From Clostridiales bacterium (GTDB taxonomy: Bacteria > Bacillota > Clostridia > Lachnospirales > Lachnospiraceae), in the NCBI GenBank assembly GCA_020859995.1, contig JAJBVE010000055.1, forward strand, positions 1 through 45,726: DNA of 45,726 nucleotides, written 5' to 3'. Position 1 is the stretch's first letter. The number at the start of each line of letters is the position of its first letter. Position numbers and translations under genes: made by a program. The notes under the pieces are model-generated. The model had not been told where the DNA came from, did no database searches, and saw only the letters and a list, made by a program, of their open reading frames with translations. Below, piece by piece: positions 1-45,726 of this stretch.

Positions 1-980
1 ACATCCTGATTGCTACGGACTGTATTTCAGAGGGCCAGAACCTGCAGGACTGCGATTTTCTGGTAAACTATGATATCCACTGGAATCCAGTGCGGATTAT
101 CCAGCGTTTCGGAAGAATCGACCGAATCGGCAGTAAGAATGATTATATCCAGCTGGTGAATTTCTGGCCGGACATGGATCTGGACGAATACATCAACCTG
201 AAAGCCAGAGTGGAAACTCGCATGAAGATTTCCGTCATGACTTCTACCGGTGATGATGACCTGATTAATGCGGAAGAAAAAGGAGATTTGGAATACCGGC
301 GCAGCCAACTGAAACGCCTGCAGGAGGAAGTGGTCGACATCGAGGATATGTCCGAGGGCATATCCATCATGGATCTTGGATTAAACGAATTCCGGCTGGA
401 CCTGTTGGAATATATGAAAACGCATCCAGACATGGACAAAAAGCCCCGTGGGCTTCACGCTGTGGTTCCGGCAATTGTGGAAACACCCCTTCGCCTTCGC
501 TCGGCGGAAGAATGCACCGGTCAATTAGAAAACGCTTCGCGTTGGACCGGTGCTGAAGAACTCCCGGAGGGAGCAATCTTCGTTCTGCGGAATGTAAATA
601 ACAGTGCGAATGTAGATAACCGGAACCGCATCCATCCATTCTATATGGTTTACATCGGAGCGGATGGTGAGGTGGTCTGCGACTACCTGAACCCGAAAAA
701 GCTTCTGGATGACGTGCGGCTGCTCTGTCGCGGCAAAGATGAACCGATACGGAGCGTTTACACAAAATTCAACGAAGAAACCGATGATGGACGGAACATG
801 GCGGAAATGTCAGAACTGTTAAGCCTTGCGATTGATTCCATCATCGACGCCAAAGAAGAAAGCGATATTGACAGCCTTTTCTCCGCTGGTGGCACTTCAG
901 CCTTGATGTCTAACGTCTCCGGCCTGGATGATTTCGAACTGATTTGCTTCCTTGTCGTAAAACAGGAGGACGCACAATGA
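1..980 (+). CDS. SNF2/DEAD-type helicase, C-terminal part (5' end off window)
   Basis: This is the end of a superfamily 2 helicase. The reading frame is open from the first bases, so the gene starts outside the window. Motif V ([12 protein letters not shown]) and motif VI ([11 protein letters not shown]) with the arginine finger are visible in the first 50 residues, followed by about 270 residues of C-terminal region without a motif I recognise. It overlaps the DUF4391 gene by 4 bases (ATGA), which indicates translational coupling. Helicase, DUF4391 and Mod-type methyltransferase in one operon suggest a type III-like restriction or related defence locus, with the helicase as translocase. The exact system cannot be named because both ends are missing. 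Confidence 0.85.
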
Positions 981-1630
981 TCGGTTTGCCAAAATCAACG
1001 GAATTCAACAAACGGATTCCAAAGCAGAAATTTTATGAAAACCTGACCGTCACTCCGGCACTCAAAACCGCTTTCAAAGAACAGATTAAGGTGATATACT
1101 GGCGGAACAAAATTGCTGCCACCACTATGAATCTAGCACCTGGGGCAACCGTCACAGAATTAGAGGTATTTGAAATCAAGCTGAACTCAGGAAATCTGGA
1201 CGAAACGGTACTGCGTCAGATTGATAAAGAAATCCCTTACCATATCCTCTTCCTGCTAGAGTATGGAGGAAAATACCAAGCATGGATTGGGTATAAAGAA
1301 GCAGCGCAGTCTGGCAACAATGCATTCAAGGTTACCGGGTATTACCACACAGACTGGCTTTCCGAAGATGCACTTGACATAAAGGCAGATGGACTTAATG
1401 TAGATGCTGTATATGAAAGCTTTGTGCGGCAGATTGCCGGAGATCAGCTGCAAACCGCGACTGGAGAATCGTTAGAGGAAACGGTAGCTCGCGCTGAGAA
1501 GAGGAAACGGTTGCAGAAACAGATTGATGCGTTGCAGGCGAAGATTCGTAAAGAAAAGCAGTTGAATAAGCAGATGGAGATGAATGAAAACTTGAAAATA
1601 CTGAGAAAAGAATTGGAGAAATTAACGTGA
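977..1630 (+). CDS. DUF4391 domain protein
   Basis: A 217-aa protein that I recognise as DUF4391-like, a family that travels with defence helicases and type III-like methyltransferases; its biochemical role is not known to me. The start ATG at 977 has a clear AGGAGG site (ACAGGAGGACGCACA) and overlaps the helicase stop. Residues about 1-160 look like an alpha/beta domain; residues about 165-217 are a charged, Lys/Glu-rich coiled coil. The gene ends overlapping the GTG start of the next gene (GTGA). Tight coupling on both sides argues for a stoichiometric partner in one complex. It could be an accessory nuclease or targeting subunit, but no catalytic motif is obvious. Confidence 0.75.
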
Positions 1631-2253
1631 ATATTCCGGATCAGATTATAAGCATAGCGGTTTCGTGTATAATTAGTGCTGGCGGTGTTGGTGCCATTAT
1701 TATATGTGTTGTAAAATTTACAGTTTCGTCAATGGCGGATGCATTAAGCAAAAAATATGAGCTTAAGCTGAATAAAGAATTAGAATGTTATAAGAAAAGT
1801 GTGGAACATAAAATATATATTAGTAGAACTAGATTTGACACAGAATTTGAACTTTATCGGAAATTATCAAAATCGTTTACAAACATGGTCAAAGAAGTAT
1901 CACAGCTTTTTCCAGGATTTACAAAAGATACTCGAGATGATTATGAGAAGTATAAAAACCAATATGATAAAGCGGTAGAAGTGTTTATTGAAGCACAAGA
2001 TGAACTGTATGCTAGTGCGCCTTTTATTTCAGAACAAATGTATACTGCTTTTATGGAAATCAAAGGACTATGTAAACTTCAGCTAAGTGATTTTGAGGAT
2101 TTTAGATTACGTTCGGATGCAGAATCATACAGAAAAGAATGTATAATAGAATTTAAGGATGCGTATAAACGCACACATGAAATAAATAAAAGATTTGATG
2201 AGTTAATTATGTTGATGCGAGATTATATTTCAAGGCTTGATGTTATTGAGTGA
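1627..2253 (+). CDS. One-TM, coiled-coil hypothetical protein in defence operon
   Basis: A 208-aa protein of unknown function. Residues about 5-32 form one hydrophobic segment (IISIAVSCIISAGGVGAIII) consistent with an N-terminal membrane anchor. The rest is helical and charged, rich in Lys, Glu and Tyr, and looks like a long cytoplasmic coiled coil. The GTG start overlaps the DUF4391 stop, and its own stop overlaps a possible GTG start of the methyltransferase frame. Base composition is more AT-rich than the DUF4391 gene, so it may be a later insertion in the operon. A membrane protein inside a methyltransferase operon is unusual; it could be a passenger or a sensor/effector. Confidence 0.7.
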   Translation: MNIPDQIISIAVSCIISAGGVGAIIICVVKFTVSSMADALSKKYELKLNKELECYKKSVEHKIYISRTRFDTEFELYRKLSKSFTNMVKEVSQLFPGFTKDTRDDYEKYKNQYDKAVEVFIEAQDELYASAPFISEQMYTAFMEIKGLCKLQLSDFEDFRLRSDAESYRKECIIEFKDAYKRTHEINKRFDELIMLMRDYISRLDVIE

Positions 2254-2273
2254 CAGAGAAAGGGAAAAAGAAA

Positions 2274-2714
2274 ATGGAAAAAATGAAAATGGAATCCGTT
2301 GATATAGCAGAACAGAATTTGAAAAAGATAGCAGAGATTTTTCCGAATTGTATAACAGAAAAATTTGATGCGGGGGGGGTTATGCGAAAAGTAGTGAATG
2401 TAAAACTGCTTGAGCAAATGTTATCTGATGAAGTGATTGATGGAGACGAAGCGTATGAATTTACATGGGTGGGTAAAAAGGCTTCTATCGTGGAAGCCAA
2501 CAAACCTATTCGTAAGACATTACGCCCATGCCCTGAAGAAAGCGTAAATTGGGATACCACAGAAAATCTTTATATTGAAGGTGATAATTTAGAAGTATTG
2601 AAGCTTTTACAAGAAAGCTATCTCGGCAAGGTTAAAATGATATATATCGATATAAAGACTCCGAAGATAATACAATTACAAGTTTCCTCTGACCGCTTAC
2701 CCCTTGCAGGGTAA
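2274..2714 (+). pseudogene. Type III-like site-specific DNA methyltransferase (Mod), truncated by prophage
   Basis: The first about 125 residues are the N-terminus of a type III-like Mod adenine methyltransferase: the stretch ENLYIEGDNLEVLKLLQES is the usual sequence before the catalytic motif. Homologues continue with KMIYIDPPYNTG; here the text reads KMIYID and then switches to unrelated codons, ending about 20 residues later. The catalytic DPPY, the FxGxG SAM site and the target domain are all lost, so the product must be inactive. The chosen ATG follows an AGAAAGGG site; a GTG at 2250 overlapping the previous stop is an alternative. The remaining half should lie to the right of the prophage. 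Confidence 0.9.
2629..2660. other. Left attachment junction (attL) inside the Mod gene
   Basis: Homology to Mod proteins stops after codon Asp (GAT, 2649-2651), so the recombination point lies at or a few bases before it. The junction contains a perfect 12-bp palindrome, TATATCGATATA (2643-2654). Serine integrases cross over at a central dinucleotide; the exact position cannot be set without the attR copy. Confidence 0.7.
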
Positions 2715-2822: not shown

Positions 2823-4394
2823 TTACGCTTTGATTTCAGTTCCGTCTTTAAATTTGACTGTGATGTCATCCTTGGCAGCGACAGTCATGTAATCGACCAT
2901 CGAGAACCAATCTTCCTCCCGGAATTCTGTAAGCAAATCCCGTTTCTGCAGCTGCTCCAGATACATCTCGATTTGCTGGCGGCGTGCCTGTCGCTCGGTG
3001 ATGAGGTCGGAAACCTCTGCGTGTCTGGCTTTCGCCTTGTCGAAGCGCTCAACTAGCGAATCGTAGTGCTTCTGGTATTCTGCCTGGTCAAGAGCAACGT
3101 GAGCGTTTTCGCGGATGCAGTCCTCGATAAGCTCTGCCACCACATTAAGCTCCGATTCCAGTTCGGTTTTTTCCTGCTCCAGTTCTTCCGTAGCGAGGAG
3201 CGGCATGACTGCATCTCGATAAGTGGCGAGGATTTCATCTTTTTCGTTGATGGCTTTGTTTGCTGCCCGTAAGAACACCTCTCGGATTTCTTCCTCGGTC
3301 AGGCTTGGCGTGGAGCATTTTTCGCCTTCAAATTTATGGTTGCACTGCCACATGGTGCGGCGGTATTTGTTATTGGAGTGCCACACCTTCGGACCGTACC
3401 AGCCTCCGCAGCAGCCACACTTAATCCTGCTGGAGAAAATGCTTACGCAGCTGACTCTATTTTTTCCCGGAGTGCGAGCAGCCATCTGCGTCTGCACCAT
3501 ATCAAAGGTATCGGGATCGATGATGGCTTCGTGATTCCCATGAACATAATACTGCGGTATCTCGCCCTCATTGACCTTTTTCTTCTTGGTAAGGAAGTCA
3601 ACCGTGTAGGATTTCTGCAGGAGGGCATCGCCTTTGTACTTTTCGTTGGTGAGTATGCTCTTGACACAGCTTGGATTCCAATGGTCGCTGCCGCCAGGTG
3701 ATTTGATACCTTCATCAGTCAGCGTTCTCGCAATCCGCATGGGCGACATCCCGGTGAGGAACATTCCGTAGATGCGCTGTACCAGCTTTGCCTGTTCTTG
3801 ATTGACCACAAGGTTCCCATCCTCACCACGGTCATAACCGAGAAACCTTCTGAATGGGACGGTCACCTTTCCGTCAGCAAATCGTTTTCTCTGTCCCCAG
3901 GTGCAGTTCTCCGAAATTGAACGCGCCTCCTCCTGCGCCAGCGAGGACATTATGGTAATGAGCAGTTCACCCTTGCCGTCAAATGTCCAGATGTTTTCTT
4001 TTTCGAAGTAGCACTCGATATTCTTTTCCTTCAGCTGGCGAATGGTGGTGAGGGAATCGACCGTGTTCCTTGCAAACCTGCTTACCGACTTTGTTATGAT
4101 GAGGTCGATTTTTCCGTCCAGCGCGTCAGCGACCATGCGCTTAAAGCCCTCCCTGTGTTTCGTGTTGGTCCCCGTGATTCCTTCATCTGCATACACGGAA
4201 ACAAACTCCCAATCGTCACGGCTCTGGATGTAGTTGGTGTAATAATCGACCTGTGCCTCGTAGCTGGTCAGCTGTTCCTCCATATCGGTGCTGACACGGG
4301 CATAGGCCGCGACACGGCGCTTCTTTGTGCTGTTAATCGGCGCTGCCGTGAACCTGCTCAGCGTCGCCGGAATTGTTGTTACTGTTTTCGCCAT
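2823..4394 (-). CDS. Large serine recombinase 1
   Basis: A 523-aa large serine recombinase that catalyses site-specific integration or excision through a 5' phosphoserine bond. The resolvase-type catalytic domain begins with YARVSTD (nucleophile Ser35), with the SVSRFARNTVD helix near residue 105. A recombinase domain follows, then a zinc ribbon (CGCCGGWY and CNHKFEGEKC) and a coiled coil near residues 390-475. The ATG start has a strong GGAGGTGG site. Its 5' end overlaps the 3' end of recombinase 2 by 62 bases in another frame, so the two are translated from one mRNA. As the gene next to the attachment junction it is a prime integrase candidate, but it may need its neighbour. Confidence 0.95.
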   Translation of the reverse strand: MAKTVTTIPATLSRFTAAPINSTKKRRVAAYARVSTDMEEQLTSYEAQVDYYTNYIQSRDDWEFVSVYADEGITGTNTKHREGFKRMVADALDGKIDLIITKSVSRFARNTVDSLTTIRQLKEKNIECYFEKENIWTFDGKGELLITIMSSLAQEEARSISENCTWGQRKRFADGKVTVPFRRFLGYDRGEDGNLVVNQEQAKLVQRIYGMFLTGMSPMRIARTLTDEGIKSPGGSDHWNPSCVKSILTNEKYKGDALLQKSYTVDFLTKKKKVNEGEIPQYYVHGNHEAIIDPDTFDMVQTQMAARTPGKNRVSCVSIFSSRIKCGCCGGWYGPKVWHSNNKYRRTMWQCNHKFEGEKCSTPSLTEEEIREVFLRAANKAINEKDEILATYRDAVMPLLATEELEQEKTELESELNVVAELIEDCIRENAHVALDQAEYQKHYDSLVERFDKAKARHAEVSDLITERQARRQQIEMYLEQLQKRDLLTEFREEDWFSMVDYMTVAAKDDITVKFKDGTEIKA

Positions 4395-6111
4395 CCTCTT
4401 TCCACCTCCTTCTTTCGCGGATAGCCTTACTCTGATTTAGCTTGCGTTCTTCTGTCCAGGGAATGCCTGTACGCCTGTCCAGATATTCCTTTGACTCCGT
4501 GTGACCATCACGGAAGTGAAAGGTCACCGTATGATCCAGAATCGTTGCGCGCTCAATGGCAGCGTCCATTTTTGCCTCATCAAATTCCGAAAGCATCAGC
4601 ACCTCGGTCACCAGACGCTTCATGGTCTCGTCCTTGATAGAAGAACGATTGCCGCATTTGGTGCGGGGAGATGTGCAATACCAATGTCGGGACATTACTC
4701 CGTTTGACATCTTCCGATTTAAGCTACGGTAATTTGCCCCACAGCAGCTGCATTTAATGAAGCCCGTGAATTCATAAAAGTGGAGCTGGTTTGGATTGGT
4801 ATCCTTATTCTTATGAAGCTCTCCCCAGCTCTTTCTACGCTCCGGTGTCCAACTGTCTGATTTTGCGGTGGATTTAAATTGCCAGGTGTAGGAAATCTCG
4901 GAACTGTCTGTCATGTGAAAGATAAGAAGATTCTCTGGGCAGACCGTAATGTGCTCAACTCTTTCCAGAAAAATGTCCTCGTCAAATTCGTTCAGCCCCA
5001 GCACCTTGCAGCAGGACTCTATCAGAGCTTCATCCGGCACGTTTCTGGCATTACAAAATTTAACACCTTTATCATCCTTGCCACGGCATGCCCACGTGAC
5101 GGCTGTGTCATTCATCCGTTTATAAGCGTGTCTGCGGTAGCTCATGCCGCAGTGAGAGCATTTTAGCTTGCTGGTAAAGCAGGAAGTCGGGATGTGAGGA
5201 TTGGCGACTGCACCGAGCTTTCTGCGACGGGCGATTTCATCCTGCACCTTCTGATAGGTCTCCATGCTGATGATGGCCTCGTGCGTATCCTGCACCCAGT
5301 ACTGCGGCAGTTCCCCACGATTTTTTCGTTTCTTTTTGCTGATGGGGTCAACTGCGTACTCCTTCTGGAACAGCAGATTCCCGGTGTAGGTAATGTTTGT
5401 AAGAATATTACGGATGGAGGCGTTGCTGAAGTGTATCCCCTTGTAGGACTTTACACCCATCTCATCCAGCTGCTTTTCTGTAGCCTCTGCCGACAGACCG
5501 TTTAAGAAATTGTCGTAAATGAGCCGGACGATTTTTGCCTCATCAGGCTGGGGAACCAGATGGTCGCCCTCCCAGCGGTAGCCGTAAATCTGAAACCGAC
5601 CATTCGGAATGCCCTGCTTGAAGCGCTTGACCGTTCCCCATTTAACATTTTCCGAAATGGAGCGGCTTTCTTCCTGCGCAAAGGATGCCAGGATGGACAT
5701 CATCAGCTCACCGTCACCGCTCATGGAATTGATGTTTTCCTTCTCGAACCGTACCTCCACACCGATGTCTTTTAAGTGCCGGACGGTTTCTAGCAGGTCG
5801 ACCGTGTTCCTCGCAAATCTCTGAATCGATTTTGTGAGAATCATGTCGATTTTTCCTGCCTCGCAGTCGGCAATCATGCGGTTAAACTCGGTACGGTTCT
5901 TTGTGCCGGTACCGGAGATGCCGCTGTCTGCGTAAACGCCAGCGTATTCCCATTCCGGGTTCTTCTGAATGTAACTGCTGTAGTAGCTGATCTGTGCGGA
6001 AAGGGAATGGCGTAAACGCTCGGTCTCCATTGAAACTCTGGCGTATGCCGCAACCCGTTTTCTCCGTTTTAGTACAGGCAGTTTCTTTTCGATTTTTTCT
6101 ACTGATTTCAC
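4333..6111 (-). CDS. Large serine recombinase 2
   Basis: A large serine recombinase of about 592 aa. The catalytic motif YARVSME gives nucleophile Ser27, counting from the GTG at 6111, which is preceded by AAGAAGGTG. A GTG at 6120 would add three residues but sits inside that site. SIQRFARNTVD and ASFAQEESRS follow as in the family. Two zinc ribbons are visible (CSHCGMSY and CSCCGANY), where recombinase 1 has one. The C-terminal tail is rich in charged residues and Asn. It heads the recombinase transcript and has a promoter of the type shared with the SymE-like and amidoligase genes. Paired recombinases may form hetero-oligomers or divide integration and excision; this is inference. Confidence 0.95.
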   Translation of the reverse strand: MKSVEKIEKKLPVLKRRKRVAAYARVSMETERLRHSLSAQISYYSSYIQKNPEWEYAGVYADSGISGTGTKNRTEFNRMIADCEAGKIDMILTKSIQRFARNTVDLLETVRHLKDIGVEVRFEKENINSMSGDGELMMSILASFAQEESRSISENVKWGTVKRFKQGIPNGRFQIYGYRWEGDHLVPQPDEAKIVRLIYDNFLNGLSAEATEKQLDEMGVKSYKGIHFSNASIRNILTNITYTGNLLFQKEYAVDPISKKKRKNRGELPQYWVQDTHEAIISMETYQKVQDEIARRRKLGAVANPHIPTSCFTSKLKCSHCGMSYRRHAYKRMNDTAVTWACRGKDDKGVKFCNARNVPDEALIESCCKVLGLNEFDEDIFLERVEHITVCPENLLIFHMTDSSEISYTWQFKSTAKSDSWTPERRKSWGELHKNKDTNPNQLHFYEFTGFIKCSCCGANYRSLNRKMSNGVMSRHWYCTSPRTKCGNRSSIKDETMKRLVTEVLMLSEFDEAKMDAAIERATILDHTVTFHFRDGHTESKEYLDRRTGIPWTEERKLNQSKAIRERRRWKEDGENSNNNSGDAEQVHGSAD

Positions 6112-6135
6112 GTAAATCACCTTCTTTTCACCGTT

Positions 6136-28677: not shown

Positions 28678-29937
28678 TTACCCTTCCGGCACCTCGACTT
28701 CCTTAACGAGAGTGGAGTAGGGGATGCGCTCACCGTTTCGGACGACAAACACATTTTCCGAGTCGCCTGTCATTTCTACATATCTGCGAAGGATGACAGA
28801 AGCGTACTTCTCATCCAGTTCCATCGAATAACAGATACGGTTTAACTGCTCGCAGGCCATCATGGTCGAGCCACTGCCGCCGAAGGTGTCAAGGACGATG
28901 GCGTTCTCCTGTGTGGAGTTGCTGATTGGATATCCCAACAGGTCGAGCGGTTTGGAAGTCGGATGATTCTCGTTTCGCTTTGGCTTGTCATAATTCCAGA
29001 TGGTGGTCTGCTTCCGGTCGGAATACCACGGGTGCTTGCCGTTCTGCAGGAAACCATACAGCACCGGCTCATGCTGCCACTGATAATCGGAGCGACCCAG
29101 CACAAGGGAATTCTTCACCCAGATACAAACTCCTGCGAGATGGAAGCCAGCGTCCACAAATGCCTTGCGGAAATTCAAGCCCTCCGTATCCGCATGGAAC
29201 ACGTAAGCCGCACCGCCATTTTCCATGTGTGCGACCATGTTAGAAAAGGACTTGTACAGAAATGTGTAGAAGTCGTCACCCTTCATGGAGTCGTTCTGGA
29301 TGGTTAATCCGTCCGAAGACTTAAAGGAGACGCCATAAGGCGGGTCCGTCACAATCAGATTTGCCTTTTTGCCATCCATCAGCTTTGCCACATCCTCGGA
29401 AGAAGTGGCGTCGCCGCACATCAGCCTGTGCCGCCCGACCGTCCAGACATCGCCTTTTTCCACAAACGCTGCCTTTTCCAGAGCCTCCGACAAATCAAAA
29501 TCATCATCCTCGACCTCGCTGTCAGAGCTGTTGGAAAACAGGTCGGTCAGCTCCTTCTCATCAAAACCGGTCAGACCGATGTCGAAATCTTCGCCCTGCA
29601 GGGACTCGATTTCGATGCGCAGGAGTTCTTCATCCCATCCGGCATCCAACGCCATTCGGTTGTCGGCAAGGATGTATGCTTTCTTCTGAGCCTCAGTCAG
29701 ATGGTCGGCAAACACACAAGGGACTTCGCTGATCCCCTCAGCTTTTGCCGCCTCGATTCTCCCGTGACCTGCGATTACGCCATAATCACGGTCAACAATG
29801 ACCGGATTGATAAAGCCGAACTCCCGGAGAGAAGAACGGAGCTTTGTAATCTGCTCCGGCGAGTGTGTCCTCGCGTTATTTACATATGGCACCAGCTTCT
29901 CAACCGGCACCAGCTGCATTTCAGATGTAGTTTTCAT
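28678..29937 (-). CDS. DNA methyltransferase with ParB-like N-terminal domain
   Basis: A 419-aa protein. Residues about 1-100 are a ParB/sulfiredoxin-type domain (LVPYVNNARTHSPEQITKLR, with VIAGHGRIEAAKAEG). The rest is an N6-adenine or N4-cytosine methyltransferase with DPPYGVSF before DTFGGSGST, the circularly permuted beta-class order. Between them lies a target domain. Phages use such orphan enzymes to protect their DNA or to mark packaging/replication sites. A SAM-synthetase gene lies 9 bases upstream in the same transcript, so supply and use of SAM are coupled. The ATG follows GAGGTGACGCT. Confidence 0.92.
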   Translation of the reverse strand: MKTTSEMQLVPVEKLVPYVNNARTHSPEQITKLRSSLREFGFINPVIVDRDYGVIAGHGRIEAAKAEGISEVPCVFADHLTEAQKKAYILADNRMALDAGWDEELLRIEIESLQGEDFDIGLTGFDEKELTDLFSNSSDSEVEDDDFDLSEALEKAAFVEKGDVWTVGRHRLMCGDATSSEDVAKLMDGKKANLIVTDPPYGVSFKSSDGLTIQNDSMKGDDFYTFLYKSFSNMVAHMENGGAAYVFHADTEGLNFRKAFVDAGFHLAGVCIWVKNSLVLGRSDYQWQHEPVLYGFLQNGKHPWYSDRKQTTIWNYDKPKRNENHPTSKPLDLLGYPISNSTQENAIVLDTFGGSGSTMMACEQLNRICYSMELDEKYASVILRRYVEMTGDSENVFVVRNGERIPYSTLVKEVEVPEG

Positions 29938-40688: not shown

Positions 40689-41294
40689 TTAAGTCAAATC
40701 CTTTATCACCTTCACGGCAACTCCCTGGATGGTGCAGCTGTCCGCGTAAATATCCTTCAGCCTGTCATTTTCAGGATGCAGTCTTACCCGTCCCTGTTCC
40801 GGTTCCGGATAGTAGCGCTTTAACGTCGCCTCATCATCCATGAGGGCAACCACAATCTGACCTTCTTCGGCAGAATCCTGCTGTCGGATAAGTACAAGGT
40901 CGCCATCGTTTATGCCCACGCCAATCATGGAATCGCCGTTCGCCCGTAAAATAAAGAAATTTCCTCGTCCGAAGAGCGCAACGGGGAGACGGATGTACTC
41001 CTCAATATTCTCTTCAGCAAACTTCGGCAGTCCACAGGACACCGCTCCGAGGACAGGAACTTTCACCGTCTCTCTTTTTGTTTTTTTCGCTTCCTTCGTC
41101 GTGATGTTGCGGGGACCTGAATAATCTAACATCCCCTGTTCACGCATATAAGCGAGGTAGCGTCCTACCGTTGATTTGGGAATGCCGAGACCAGCTTCGA
41201 TCTCACGGATAGTGGGAGTAGCACCGTTTGCTTCCCGGTAGTCATCAATGAAGTCTTCAATCAGCTTGAAGAACTCCGTATTTTTTACCGACAT
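40689..41294 (-). CDS. LexA-like prophage repressor (S24 self-cleaving)
   Basis: A 201-aa repressor. The N-terminal winged HTH (about 8-58, GATPTIREIEAGLGIPKSTV) is LexA-type. The S24 peptidase part has the cleavage pair Cys87-Gly88 in AVSCGLP, nucleophile Ser122 in ANGDSM, and Lys159 in DDEATLKRYY, so RecA-stimulated self-cleavage is expected and DNA damage should induce the prophage. The ATG follows AAAAAGGAGGACCATT. It could be a host-type LexA captured by the phage. It is co-directional with the early genes, so there is no classical divergent repressor/lytic switch here. Confidence 0.92.
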   Translation of the reverse strand: MSVKNTEFFKLIEDFIDDYREANGATPTIREIEAGLGIPKSTVGRYLAYMREQGMLDYSGPRNITTKEAKKTKRETVKVPVLGAVSCGLPKFAEENIEEYIRLPVALFGRGNFFILRANGDSMIGVGINDGDLVLIRQQDSAEEGQIVVALMDDEATLKRYYPEPEQGRVRLHPENDRLKDIYADSCTIQGVAVKVIKDLT

Positions 41295-41604: not shown

Positions 41605-42585
41605 ATGCCAAAACAGAACTGGCAGAAGATAAAGCTGCTAAAACTTGTTGACCTTCTTCGTCAGGAAACGGATGAACAGCATCCTCTTACTACAACGCAG
41701 ATTTGCGAACGCATGAATGATATGGGCATTCCTTGTGACCGACGCATTTTAAGTAAGGACATCGAACTTTTAAATGAAAACGGAATTGAAGTTCTGTGGA
41801 CATGGGTTGGTAAATGTAAGGGATATTACACTGAAGATCGCACTTTCTCTGTTCCAGAATTAAAGATTTTGATTGATGCGGTTCAGGCAGCCGCTTTTGT
41901 TACGGATAAGAAAACAGAGGAACTGGTTGACAAACTTGCTGGCATGGGCGGAACTAACAGAGCAGAGATTCTTAAGAGCAATCTTGCTCACTTTAATACT
42001 CGAAAGCATAGTAATGAAAGTATCTACTATAATGTTGATGCGATTGAGGATGCCCTACAACGCCAAAGGAAAATCATATTCCGGTATTTTGACTTAGATA
42101 TAAAGGGCAAAAAACGCTACCGGCGTGATGGACATCATTATGTTGTGGAACCGGTGGCGCTTGTCTATAACGAAGACAATTATTATATTGTCGTCTACAG
42201 TGAAAGGCATGACGACACAGCAAATTACCGGGTCGACCGCATGGATAGTGTTGAAGTGATTGAAGAAAGTATTTCGGAAAAAGCGGTCACACTGAAGGAT
42301 AGGGTTGGCGAATATACAGAACAGGCAATAAAAATGTATGGCGGAGAGCCGCAAACTGTCGTATTGGAATTTGATAGCAAACTGACAGGCGTTATCTATG
42401 ACCGCTTTGGAGAAGGCGTGAACATGATGCCTTCCAGCGAGGACAAGATGCTGGCAACCGTCAGGGTACAGCTCTCGCCTACCTTTTGGGGATGGCTGTT
42501 TCAATTTGGAGCCAAGATGAGGGTATTGTCGCCGAGTAGTGTTACGGAAGAATATAGGGCAAGAGTGGCAGAACTACAACTGTAA
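41605..42585 (+). CDS. WYL-domain transcriptional regulator
   Basis: A 326-aa regulator: N-terminal winged HTH of the HTH_11 type (residues about 8-75, LTTTQICERMNDMGIPCDRR, then LSKDIELLNENGIEV) and a WYL domain (about 145-245) with NYYIVVYSE in place of the WYL triad and YRVDRMDSVEV. A C-terminal extension (about 250-326, PSSEDKMLATVRVQLSPTFW) is the usual WCX domain. WYL proteins often head defence operons and sense nucleic-acid ligands. The ATG follows ATCGGAGGGATAAAGCTT. The next gene begins 17 bases downstream, so it is probably an autorepressor of the cargo operon. Confidence 0.88.
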   Translation: MPKQNWQKIKLLKLVDLLRQETDEQHPLTTTQICERMNDMGIPCDRRILSKDIELLNENGIEVLWTWVGKCKGYYTEDRTFSVPELKILIDAVQAAAFVTDKKTEELVDKLAGMGGTNRAEILKSNLAHFNTRKHSNESIYYNVDAIEDALQRQRKIIFRYFDLDIKGKKRYRRDGHHYVVEPVALVYNEDNYYIVVYSERHDDTANYRVDRMDSVEVIEESISEKAVTLKDRVGEYTEQAIKMYGGEPQTVVLEFDSKLTGVIYDRFGEGVNMMPSSEDKMLATVRVQLSPTFWGWLFQFGAKMRVLSPSSVTEEYRARVAELQL

Positions 42586-42602
42586 ATTGAAAGGGGATAG
42601 AT

Positions 42603-45086
42603 GTGGCAATGGCTGTTAGAGTTCCATGGGATAAATATGAAGCAGCTATGTTACTTGATGCGTGCTTGCGTGTTGATCAAGGCAAAATGGATCGTGCATC
42701 AGCCATTACATATGTGTCTAAGACCTTAAGAGAGCGAGCTATTAAGCAGGGAAAAGAGATTGATTTTGTTTTTAGAAACGAAAATGGAATTTCAATGCAG
42801 CTTTCAGCAATGATGACATGCGTTCATCATAAATCAGGCGGATTAACCATTTCAAAGGTTTTTCGTGAGGTTGTCGAGTTGTATGAGTCAGACAAGGAGA
42901 ATTTTAACATGTTAGTACAAGAGGCAGCAAACTCAAATTTTCACAAAACAAAAGTAGAAACATTTGCCTCTTGGCTTGAGGAACAAGAAAAGTATATTTC
43001 TTTTGCGAATGAGATTATTCAACAGATTAATATAGTAAGCGTTTTTCTTCTTAAGTCAGGCGTGATAAAGGCACCTATTTTAAAGAGTAATTCTAAGGAG
43101 GAAGTTAATCGGGCGCTTGTTACTTTAAAAGAAAACAGGATTTTACATATCCATTCGGCAAAACAGCTGCGAAAGTATGTTTATGCTGTTAATGCTTTTT
43201 TGGAGTATTTATCACGAGAGAATACATGTGATGAAGCCTTTCTCTCGGCGATGCCCCAAGAAAATGAAGAGTCAAATTTGCAAGTGAATTTTACCAAACC
43301 AACAGGCTTTGCTTATACAAGACCGGATTATTTCAAATTTGAAGGTTTGGATGCTGTGCCTGTAAAAAATTGGACGAAACTGTATGTCAACGTTTTGAAT
43401 GAATTATGCAGAAGAGATTCGGAATTGTTAAAGTCACTAGTTGGGAAGAACATCAGTGGAGCGACACGAATAGACTTTCTTAATTCTGACGAGTCACTGC
43501 AAATGACAGCGCCATGTATTCTCAATAATGGCTTGGCGGTTGAAACCAACTTAAGTGCTTCCGATATAGTAAGGAAAATCAGAGTACTTTTGGATATATA
43601 TGGCATTCCGCATTCTTCGCTTATGATTATATACCACAAACGAGATAAGAAGACTACGGAAAATACGTTGATTGATGGTGAACATCCTTCACATAAGTGG
43701 CTTCCTAAATACACCGAACCAGTAAGGAGGGTTCTGGAAAAACATTATTCCTACGGATTCAGGATGAATTCTCCAATCGAAATGATGCGCTTTCGAAACT
43801 ACGCTGAGAGGGATATGATTTCTCTACCGGTCTCTGATGAGGAATTAAGTAGAGAAATCTCTACTGCAGGGATGTTGATTGATGGAAAAATTTATTCGTT
43901 TGACAAGGACACCCAGTCAGGACTCTTGAGTTTAGTAAGCGCTATTTTTGATGGCGGATCACATGTAATCTTTTTAGAGCCATTTATGGATATTAATTCC
44001 GAGTGGCTAGAGGAACATTATCTTTTATCCCCCGAAATGATAAAAGAGGTTCTTTGCAGAAATTGCTCTGATTTTTATTGTGGGCAAAACATTATAACAT
44101 TTAAAGAAAAGAAAACCGAGCACGAGGCTGTGGTTTCAGAAATTCATCGGGTCAGCAAAACAGAGTCCGTTGTTTGGCTATCTGATTTATGCGAAAAATT
44201 ACCATATATTCCAAATGACAAAATCGCATGGAGTTTATCAGCATGTGATGATTTCGTGTGGATTAGTGAAGGCAAATATTTTGTAATGGAGCATTTTGTA
44301 ATAAGTGAAAATGAGTTGGCAACAATCCGTGCTTATGTCGCTAATGAATGTTGCGAAAATGGATATGTTTCCATTACTGATTTACCTTTTGGAACTATCC
44401 CGGAAGAAAATTATGAACTTTCCATTACAGCTCTTTATTCTGCTGTTTATATTGCTGTTTTAAAGCCAAAATATCAGCTGAACGGAAAGATTCTTACTTG
44501 TAATGATGAAAAAATAGATATCGTTGTTCTCTTAAAAAGGTACTGCCAAAATCGACTGTCATGCACGATGGCAGAAGTTATGAATAAAGCGGTTGAATTA
44601 GTTGGGACTCAAAATCGACAGAATTCATTTATTGCTTTGTATGACACTATGATTCGTACAGATAAAGAGAATTTCGTCTCCGATTCGCAAGTGCAGTTTG
44701 ATGTAGATTTAATAGATGAAGAATTACAAGATATAATTGGAGAGCAATTTATACCAATTAAAGGAGTTACAACATTTGGATTGTTTCCGTCTTGCGGAAA
44801 AACCTGGAATCACTATTTACTGGAAAGCTTTTGCTATCGCTTTAGCAAAAAATATCGCCTGTGTGTGTTGAACTATAATGATAAAAATGCGGGAATTATT
44901 GTTGCTAAATCTTTTAATATGAACTATACAGACATGCTTTGTGATGCAGTAGCGAAATCCGGCATACCATTAACGACAGAAGCAGTTGGCGGTTTTTTGT
45001 TTGAAAATGGTTTTTCTGCAAAGAGAAAACTTTCAAACCTTCCAGAGATTACAGAGAAGGCAGCAAAAATTAGAGAGGAGGAATGA
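42603..45086 (+). CDS. Unrecognised 827-aa multidomain protein
   Basis: I do not recognise this protein as a whole. Residues about 1-110 (RVPWDKYEAAMLLDACLRV, then FVFRNENGISMQLSAMM) resemble a small domain that precedes HNH-type restriction proteins, where an F-R-N-x-N-G-I/V-x-M/Q pattern is common; this is a weak pattern match. Residues about 120-330 are helical. The last 300 residues (for example SKTESVVWLSDLCEKLPYIP, then SENELATIRAYVANECCENG) look like successive winged-helix units. No Walker, HNH or PD-(D/E)XK motif was found. AAAGGGGATAGAT precedes the GTG start. It overlaps the PAPS-reductase frame, so the two are likely partners. Confidence 0.8.
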   Translation: MAMAVRVPWDKYEAAMLLDACLRVDQGKMDRASAITYVSKTLRERAIKQGKEIDFVFRNENGISMQLSAMMTCVHHKSGGLTISKVFREVVELYESDKENFNMLVQEAANSNFHKTKVETFASWLEEQEKYISFANEIIQQINIVSVFLLKSGVIKAPILKSNSKEEVNRALVTLKENRILHIHSAKQLRKYVYAVNAFLEYLSRENTCDEAFLSAMPQENEESNLQVNFTKPTGFAYTRPDYFKFEGLDAVPVKNWTKLYVNVLNELCRRDSELLKSLVGKNISGATRIDFLNSDESLQMTAPCILNNGLAVETNLSASDIVRKIRVLLDIYGIPHSSLMIIYHKRDKKTTENTLIDGEHPSHKWLPKYTEPVRRVLEKHYSYGFRMNSPIEMMRFRNYAERDMISLPVSDEELSREISTAGMLIDGKIYSFDKDTQSGLLSLVSAIFDGGSHVIFLEPFMDINSEWLEEHYLLSPEMIKEVLCRNCSDFYCGQNIITFKEKKTEHEAVVSEIHRVSKTESVVWLSDLCEKLPYIPNDKIAWSLSACDDFVWISEGKYFVMEHFVISENELATIRAYVANECCENGYVSITDLPFGTIPEENYELSITALYSAVYIAVLKPKYQLNGKILTCNDEKIDIVVLLKRYCQNRLSCTMAEVMNKAVELVGTQNRQNSFIALYDTMIRTDKENFVSDSQVQFDVDLIDEELQDIIGEQFIPIKGVTTFGLFPSCGKTWNHYLLESFCYRFSKKYRLCVLNYNDKNAGIIVAKSFNMNYTDMLCDAVAKSGIPLTTEAVGGFLFENGFSAKRKLSNLPEITEKAAKIREEE

Positions 45087-45091
45087 TTCTA

Positions 45092-45688
45092 GTGTACTCA
45101 TATACATATGATACTGAAAGCGGCGGAATTGTCCTGAACTCTACACCCACAAATTTTTCAAAAGAACCAAGACCTGTTTATGCACCCGAAATGGACTTGT
45201 TGGGTTTTGGTAACTATTGGGAATATGATAAACAATCGAATATACCTTATATGTGGGCAGAATCTAATGTTTACTGGTATCGGAATATCCAGATTGCTAA
45301 GACAAAAGGTGGCAATTTGTACACTGCTCCCGAATTGCAGCCACTTTACAAAGATGATGGACATGTTTTCTATGCCAAAGAAGATGGCTATATTCTTCGA
45401 CCAATTGACATATCTGCAATGTGCACCATGAACAAAGACATTATGGAAATTGTCGAAGACACAACAGTCAAGAAAATTGTTAAGGAATACGAAAAGTTCA
45501 AGCACAAGTTAGATATTTTTCATGTTGCATTTTCTGGCGGAAAAGATAGCGCGGTATTGCTTGATTTAGTAAAGAAGGTTCTTCCAATTGGAAGCTTCGT
45601 AGTGATATTTGGCGATACTGGAATGGAATTTCCAGACACATATAATGTGGTGAAACAAACGCAGATACAATGCAGCGCTAAAGAATAA
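45092..45688 (+). pseudogene. PAPS reductase-family (PP-loop) protein, ends prematurely
   Basis: The frame encodes 198 aa: residues 1-140 are the tyrosine-rich N-terminal region of a long PAPS-reductase-family type (RPVYAPEMDLLGFGNYWEYD, then AKTKGGNLYTAPELQPL). The PP-loop SGGKDSAV is at about residue 148, followed by FGDTGMEFPDTYN. Homologues continue for hundreds of residues with Cys-rich motifs. Here a TAA ends the frame after CSAKE and a TGA follows nine codons on, while the intervening codons (KAEVYTNS) still resemble the expected position. So it is decayed, or sequence at the window edge is faulty. The GTG is chosen because homologues begin MYSYT; an ATG three codons earlier overlaps the previous stop. 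Confidence 0.7.
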
Positions 45689-45726
45689 AAAGCTGAAGTC
45701 TATACAAATTCTTGATTTTTTCCAAA

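What the first reader, a model, noticed from the sequence alone, without database searches (positions are those of the whole stretch)
41605..45688. WYL regulator, 827-aa protein and PAPS-reductase operon as candidate defence cargo
Three tightly coupled genes (17-base gap, then overlap) are AT-rich, point away from the phage genes and sit at the prophage edge, where defence cargo is common. WYL proteins head many defence loci. PAPS-reductase-like PP-loop enzymes act in DNA sulfur modification, but the dnd/ssp partners are not seen here. The 827-aa protein carries no motif that I know apart from an N-terminal domain resembling one on HNH restriction proteins and winged-helix units. This set does not match a defence system I can name, and it is the best candidate for something undescribed.
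Basis: partly seen in the sequence, partly recalled or inferred. Interest (0 to 1): 0.76.

Follow-up and report, generated by a model that had tools for sequence, protein, structure and literature searches.

The report
Broken BREX-4 operon with unlisted DNA-binder
Beside a prophage lies the front end of a known anti-phage system (BREX type 4), cut off by an inserted element, and its large 827-residue protein belongs to a conserved, apparently unnamed family that looks like a modular DNA-reading part.

Summary
The three genes are real and lie where described, but they are not a new system. The PAPS-reductase frame is the 5' part of brxP (PADLOC BrxP, E=3.9e-72), so this is the front of a BREX type 4 operon. 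From about 45673 brxP runs into a repeat end that also stands at 14 other contig ends of the genome; BrxC and the rest of BrxP were not found in the assembly, nor type-4 PglZ with an uncontrolled probe. This copy is probably dead.

The 827-aa protein (X) is the interesting part. It lies upstream of brxP in 77 of the 80 BrxP loci most similar to one query; the other three start at a contig edge. In two wider samples it is there in 11 of 22 testable loci. X has a conserved ~470-aa core, without a recognised family, behind 22-946 variable residues. Core relatives also sit beside PbeA-PbeC and PDC-M33 genes. Core identity tracks BrxC and PglZ (r=0.94).

Best reading: X is a DNA-reading front end that directs BrxC-PglZ; binding is untested. 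The texts I could read do not name X; the main BREX-4 paper was not held.

The parts
41605..42585 (+). WYL/WCX-domain protein, 326 aa, probable regulator of the operon
   Evidence: Pfam WYL 1e-12, WCX 2.6e-8; orthologue directly upstream of X in L060, L069, L076 and L077; 88.7% identical to that of L069
42603..43703 (+). X, variable N-terminal part (about 367 aa), with one copy of the repeated ~85-aa unit that I take as SAM-like
   Evidence: N-terminal relatives in other X proteins, best L034 31% over 391 columns; one repeat unit at frame residues 124-207
43704..45086 (+). X, conserved C-terminal core (about 460 aa) and stop codon
   Evidence: matches core profile positions 5-471 of 474, E=1e-135, the window being one of the profile's members; aligned
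45083..45672 (+). 5' part of brxP (PAPS-reductase-like), interrupted; the open frame runs on to the stop at 45686-45688
   Evidence: PADLOC BrxP 3.9e-72 over positions 2-188 of 779; aligned with L013 and L014 BrxP
45673..45726 (+). end of a multi-copy inserted element (54 bases seen before the contig ends)
   Evidence: 15 exact matches to 36 of these bases in the genome, each within 8 bases of a contig end; common sequence starts at the same base after unrelated flanks
40689..41294 (-). prophage S24-type repressor, the nearest phage gene (boundary, not part of the operon)
   Evidence: Pfam Peptidase_S24 1.1e-29, phrog_4 repressor

Best explanation
Identity (about 0.9): the genes are the front of a BREX type 4 operon (WYL regulator, X, brxP) beside a prophage, with brxP cut by an inserted element; this copy is probably not functional. 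Mechanism of X (about 0.45): X is a DNA-reading front end. Its variable N-terminal modules bind a feature of incoming DNA and its conserved core passes that DNA to the BrxC ATPase and the PglZ nuclease, while BrxP with a desulfurase marks host DNA with phosphorothioate. Shown: gene order, conservation and modular build of X, co-variation of its core with BrxC and PglZ, interruption of brxP, no BrxC found in the assembly. Inferred: DNA binding, contact with BrxC or PglZ, sensing.
For: BrxP match. X upstream of BrxP in 77 of 80 ranked loci (two of the 77, L033 and L105, were members of the first profile) and in 11 of 22 testable loci of two wider samples. Complete order WYL-X-BrxP-BrxC-PglZ-BrxL-desulfurase in L077; 57 loci with X, BrxP, BrxC, PglZ and BrxL. 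Core identity tracks BrxC and PglZ: r 0.94 and 0.94 in 57 loci, 0.94 and 0.90 in 13 loci not ranked by BrxP. X length 479-1419, sd 226 (n=67), against BrxC sd 13 (n=66, after dropping 9 frames under 1300 aa). DNA-binding modules at the N-terminus: Phage_int_SAM_1 in 4 of 52; RNA_pol_A_CTD and Sigma70_r4 over their cut-offs in the X relative of L163. Weak internal repeats in the core, offset about 130 residues. Insertion end at 15 contig ends; no BrxC in G000.
Against: X is missing or not recognised in 11 of the 22 testable loci, so BREX-4 can do without it. Comparing the two halves of the core gave only 3% probability of a repeat. Co-variation also follows from common descent in one operon: in the 13 loci BrxP-BrxC reach 0.92. 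Core relatives occur without BrxP in 16 of 22 X-positive Clostridia genomes. PglZ absence rests on a model for which no control genome rang in that search; BrxL was not searched in G000.
Confidence: 0.5

Rival explanations
1. X is a transcription factor of the operon: its sigma-like and alpha-CTD-like modules steer RNA polymerase, with the WYL protein as co-regulator, and it takes no part in restriction.
For: A SigA-like sigma factor stands in the slot upstream of BrxP in L213 (E=1.3e-76 to solved SigA); the X relative of L163 has RNA_pol_A_CTD and Sigma70_r4 domains; WYL genes lie directly upstream of X in 4 of the 56 loci that hold at least 1000 bases there.
Confidence: 0.2
2. X is the specificity subunit of the phosphorothioate modification and tells BrxP where to act.
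For: Its N-terminal part is modular and hypervariable and its gene touches brxP.
Against: In L085 and L053 an inner 1.5-kb part of brxP has been exchanged while X stays 95% and BrxC 98% identical; in L111 and L053 X lost or gained about 230 aa while BrxP stays 95% identical. This suggests that BrxP carries its own variable specificity, as the published BrxP-DUF4007 fusion (PMC12839542, section 34) would allow; Pfam showed only the PAPS domain in the BrxP of L077. Half of the wider sample has no X.
Confidence: 0.15
3. The operon is complete and working in the organism; the contig merely ends at a repeat and the downstream genes were lost from the assembly or lie beyond the element.
For: The contig ends inside the repeat; the genome is in 239 contigs and 97% complete; PglZ absence is weakly controlled.
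Against: The repeat end lies inside brxP in any case. BrxC, a 1400-aa protein, was not found, while the same query finds BrxC by phmmer in 76 of 80 related loci. The BrxP model finds in G000, besides the window, only four short matches at positions 457-515 (E 9e-6 to 2e-4), which I take as ferredoxin-like.
Confidence: 0.1
4. An undescribed system unrelated to BREX.
For: The core of X matched no recognised family.
Against: BrxP match and complete BREX-4 operons around the relatives.
Confidence: 0.02

Closest known systems
BREX type 4 (brxPCZL)
   Same: BrxP-type PAPS reductase start in the window; relatives lie in BrxP-BrxC-PglZ-BrxL operons, often with a desulfurase
   Different: In G000 only regulator, X and a brxP fragment were found; X is not among the components named in the passages that I read (PMC12839542 sections 34 and 38 and passages; PMC12707154 and PMC11931770 passages)
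BrxR, the WYL regulator of BREX (PMC9122589, title and passages seen)
   Same: WYL protein encoded just upstream of BREX genes
   Different: Not compared with BrxR by sequence; the window's WYL protein is known here only next to type 4 genes
Dnd and Ssp phosphorothioation systems
   Same: PAPS-reductase-like enzyme; one X relative stands in an operon with PbeA, PbeC, DndB and DndC (L163)
   Different: The window's frame prefers BrxP (241.6 bits) over SspD (20.2) and DndC (11.5)
PbeA-PbeC and PDC-M33 loci
   Same: A relative of the X core is encoded next to them: L163 and L224 (Pbe), L156, L164, L168, L169 (M33)
   Different: No Pbe or M33 match among the window's three proteins
Multi-winged-helix defence proteins such as DndG, SspB and BrxA (PMC10853773 and PMC12839542, passages)
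   Same: If my reading of the alignment is right, the X core too is a string of winged-helix-like units
   Different: No profile match of the X core to BrxP N- or C-terminal part, BrxC, PglZ or BrxL (best probability 3%); DndG, SspB and BrxA were not compared

Membership tests
BREX type 4 | BrxP-type PAPS reductase | tested here: met
   Only for the start of the protein: PADLOC BrxP positions 2-188 of 779, E=3.9e-72
BREX type 4 | full-length BrxP | tested here: not met
   Frame cut at about 45673; no remainder found in G000 apart from four short weak matches taken as ferredoxin-like. Filed as a remnant of the system, not as a working member
BREX type 4 | BrxC ATPase | tested here: not met
   No match in G000; the same protein finds BrxC in 76 of 80 related loci by phmmer
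BREX type 4 | PglZ | tested here: inconclusive
   None in G000 with PDLC02554, but no control rang in that search; the model does match the PglZ proteins of L077 and L064. PF08665 is uninformative, as it does not match the PglZ of L077
BREX type 4 | BrxL | not tested
   Not searched in G000; present in relatives
BREX type 4 | phosphorothioate in host DNA and phage resistance | not testable with these tools
   needs experiment
BrxR-like WYL regulator | WYL protein next to BREX genes | tested here: met
BrxR-like WYL regulator | sequence relationship to characterised BrxR | not tested
   no BrxR sequence was compared
Dnd or Ssp system | DndC or SspD as best match, with dnd/ssp partners | tested here: not met
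   BrxP scores far higher and no Dnd/Ssp match among the other two proteins
X-core family (named here) | ~470-aa C-terminal core | tested here: met
   the window is one of the profile's members, but homologues were also found with the single window protein

The most novel reading that the evidence does not exclude
The X core is a shared, exchangeable DNA-reading adaptor plugged into at least three otherwise different anti-phage machines (BREX type 4, a Pbe/Dnd phosphorothioation system and PDC-M33). Its N-terminal slot is filled with borrowed DNA-binding parts, some from the transcription machinery (sigma region 4, alpha-CTD; in one BREX-4 locus a SigA-like factor takes the place of X), so that these systems recognise features of phage DNA or of its transcription.
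Probability: 0.3. Interest if true: 0.72.

Novelty: new variant of a known kind. Interest (0 to 1): 0.5.

Why it matters
How BREX recognises invaders is still open, and type 4, which uses sulfur instead of methyl marks, is little studied. A conserved, modular, fast-changing protein that travels with BrxC and PglZ, and that the component lists I could read leave out, is a concrete candidate for a sensor. It can be tested by a single-gene deletion in an intact operon. Its relatives beside PbeA-PbeC and PDC-M33 genes suggest that one part may serve several systems. The window's own copy matters mainly as a broken example.

Tried and rejected
Considered and rejected: a new non-BREX system; a Dnd/Ssp fragment; X as a member of a known family: single-member hits at E<=0.01 (PADLOC Cas12a 3e-4, Csx19, PDC-M49B; Pfam HARE-HTH 4e-4, PIN_4, KaiA_N, XPD_arch; Hydant_A_C in two) were taken as chance or as single modules; their places in the proteins are not shown, except XPD_arch in the window's N-terminal part. 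PDB matches of the core profile at E 0.4-1 and a ferritin at 8e-4 to window X residues 55-145 were taken as chance.

Led nowhere: a pattern scan of genome contigs with the window's X alone (3 stretches, none a relative); PF08665 as PglZ probe; plasmid records (no match); phage records (one unannotated record, 28% identity, not followed); repeats at the prophage edges; promoter/terminator scan (5 promoter-like sites against 3.1 +- 1.8 by chance). Literature searches.

Corrected on the way: one search gave r(X, BrxC)=0.53 in 13 loci. I suspected that the script took wrong X pieces in multi-domain proteins and reran it with domain scores and a length floor (0.94). One search also shows that the contrast between X-BrxC and X-BrxP (0.94 against 0.63; bootstrap difference 0.31, 0.20 to 0.42) is largely absent in the 13 loci not ranked by BrxP (0.94 against 0.87), so I base no claim on it.
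Full report
WHAT IS THERE. Three + strand genes follow the prophage repressor: a WYL regulator at 41605-42585, an 827-aa protein (called X) at 42603-45086 and a PAPS-reductase-like frame at 45083-45688. GC falls from mostly about 0.50 to 0.35-0.43. WYL and WCX domains are clear. X has no family above a cut-off. The third frame matches PADLOC BrxP at E=3.9e-72 over positions 2-188 of 779, far better than SspD or DndC. The locus is the front of a BREX type 4 operon.

WHY IT STOPS. The frame aligns with the start of relatives' BrxP. The last 54 bases of the window begin a sequence of which 36 bases occur 15 times in the genome, each within 8 bases of a contig end and starting at the same base after unrelated flanks. 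That is the mark of one end of a multi-copy inserted element that also broke the assembly; only this end was seen. In G000 (4.4 Mb, 97% complete) the BrxP model finds besides the window only four short matches at positions 457-515, E 9e-6 to 2e-4, which I take as ferredoxin-like. BrxC is not found; the same protein finds BrxC by phmmer in 76 of 80 related loci. Type-4 PglZ is not found, but no control rang in that search; the model does match the PglZ of L077 and L064. BrxL was not searched. I read the local copy as probably dead.

X IN BREX-4. A scan of genome contigs with a BrxP alignment found 225 relatives and kept the best 80. X was found on the same strand upstream of BrxP in 77; the gap between the open frames is at most 252 bases in 76 of them and 685 in L063. 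The other three (L067, L071, L093) have at most 151 bases in front of the BrxP frame. Two of the 77 (L033, L105) are the same contigs as members of the first profile. Besides pieces cut by contig starts, L099 and L104 match only about the first 60% of the core. Named sources include Lachnospiraceae, Oscillospiraceae, Bacteroidales, Spirochaetes, Synergistales, Desulfobulbus, Alphaproteobacteria, planctomycetes and Thermotogae. In L077 the order is WYL, X, BrxP, BrxC, PglZ (Pfam DUF7862-7864), BrxL, desulfurase. 57 loci hold X, BrxP, BrxC, PglZ and BrxL. A WYL orthologue stands directly upstream of X in 4 of the 56 loci with at least 1000 bases there.

LIMITS OF THAT. The 80 were ranked by similarity to one BrxP. 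In 391 genomes of the class, 8 have BrxP at E below 1e-100 (the window's fragment, 1.8e-71, not counted). One (G549) is cut by a contig end. Of the other 7, X lies upstream in 5: G542, G350, G348, G431 and, split by a contig end, G451. G573 has a 265-aa protein that in part resembles an N-terminal module of the window's X (E=3e-10); G314 has transporter genes there. In 398 genomes of the phylum there are 15 BrxP matches in 14 genomes. X is upstream in 6, in L211 with one small gene between. L217 and L220 have 540- and 471-aa proteins that share X N-terminal units (best phmmer to an X 1.5e-53 and 3.7e-25) and a short piece resembling the start of the core (hhalign 89% and 41%). L213 has a SigA-like sigma factor (E=1.3e-76) and L219 a protein that shares its N-terminal part. 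L208, L209, L210, L214 and L216 have nothing that I recognise. Together X stands in 11 of 22 testable loci, something related or sigma-like in 5, nothing recognised in 6. Some of these BrxP genes are themselves shortened or hold stops (G881, G813, G431, G908). X marks a branch of BREX-4, not all of it.

ANATOMY. The core profile has 474 positions; invariant columns include those of an FP..G..WN..LLES-like stretch (40 sequences). Self-comparison of the core profile gives weak internal repeats at an offset of about 130 residues (probabilities 70 and 66), but comparing its two halves gives 3%. I read the alignment as a string of winged-helix-like units; no structure could be predicted. In front lie 22-946 residues (73 proteins with a full core). 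A unit of about 85 aa seeded from the window's X occurs in 50 of 78 X proteins, one to four times; I take it to be the Phage_int_SAM_1-like module that Pfam sees in 4 of 52. X length runs from 479 to 1419 (sd 226, n=67 frames not at a contig edge); BrxC has sd 13 (n=66, after 9 frames under 1300 aa were dropped) and BrxP, some frames cut, sd 76 (n=80).

EVOLUTION. Pairwise identity of the core tracks BrxC and PglZ at r=0.94 and 0.94 (57 loci), 0.94 and 0.93 in 74 loci with some duplicates, and 0.94 and 0.90 in 13 loci not ranked by BrxP. BrxP tracks X less well in the 57 (0.63) but well in the 13 (0.87; BrxP-BrxC 0.92), so I make no general claim that BrxP is exchanged more. Three comparisons stand on their own. 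L085 against L053: DNA about 95% identical on both sides of a 1.5-kb stretch inside brxP that differs (BrxP 58%, X 95%, BrxC 98%). L111 against L053: BrxP 95%, but a block of about 230 aa in the X N-terminus is present in one and absent in the other. In the window the WYL gene is 84% (DNA) and 89% (protein) identical to that of L069, while its X core is only 26% identical to that of L069 and nearest to L106 (39%); L106 is also among the nearest for the BrxP start (62%). The operon is a mosaic with a joint near the WYL-X boundary.

OTHER HOMES OF THE CORE. Of 22 X-positive genomes of the class, 16 have no BrxP at E below 1e-25. I fetched 17 loci from 15 of these 16. Four have PDC-M33A and M33B relatives next to X (L156, L164, L168, L169; X of L169 is the weakest, E=8e-18, and unlabelled). 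One has PbeA, a PbeC/DndD-like protein, DndB and DndC (L163). L224 of the phylum sample has X, PbeA and a PbeC relative. The neighbours of the other 12 were mostly not scanned. The X relative of L163 has RNA_pol_A_CTD and Sigma70_r4 over their cut-offs; that of L157 has HHH and Sigma70_r4 just below. Five IMG/VR contigs hold X followed by BrxP, four of them with BrxC and part of PglZ; whether these are phage cargo or host flanks was not settled.

HOW IT MOST LIKELY WORKS (inference). BrxP and a desulfurase mark host DNA with sulfur. X recognises a feature of incoming DNA through its changing N-terminal modules and passes it through its core to BrxC and PglZ. Rivals: a transcription factor (sigma-like parts, L213), or the specificity subunit of BrxP, against which the L085/L053 pair speaks.

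LITERATURE. PMC12839542 (abstract, sections 34 and 38, capped passages) speaks of five known major type-4 components and adds a desulfurase; X is not among them there. Passages seen of PMC10853773, PMC12707154, PMC11931770, PMC13326643 and PMC9122589 do not name it. Searches. The BREX type 4 paper by Yuan et al. was not held and supplements were not open to me, so I do not claim that X is absent from print. That the window's genome is of the Lachnospiraceae is inferred: its family mates G173 and G148 have the contig lengths of L033 and L105.

Noticed in passing
window 45673-45726 and 14 other contig ends of G000: One end of a multi-copy inserted element, starting CAGCGCTAAAG; in many of the sites the flank shows CAA about 20 bases before the junction, perhaps a target preference. 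The element itself was not identified.
   Followed up: partly
window 2823-4394 and 4333-6120 (-): Two adjacent integrase genes, both matching phrog_95 integrase and phrog_125 DNA invertase, at the left end of the prophage.
   Followed up: no
window 3-2714 (+): Left flank with a helicase-like C-terminal part, two small proteins and a short DNA-methyltransferase-like protein, perhaps another defence or mobile locus cut by the prophage.
   Followed up: no
L085 10521-12059 against L053: An inner 1.5-kb segment of brxP differs while the DNA on both sides is about 95% identical: an allele exchange inside the phosphorothioation gene.
   Followed up: partly
L213 11630-13126 (-): A SigA-like sigma factor with an extra N-terminal part encoded directly upstream of BrxP, where X usually stands.
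   Followed up: partly
L211 6099-6875 (+): A 259-aa protein between X and BrxP with a weak match to an X N-terminal domain and a Cys/His stretch that I read as HNH-like.
   Followed up: no
L173-L177; phage record MT835511.1 14651-15985: X and BrxP genes on five contigs classed as viral, and an X-core relative in an unannotated phage record.
   Followed up: no
window 28678-29937 (-): A phage protein matching both ParB-like and DNA-methyltransferase families.
   Followed up: no
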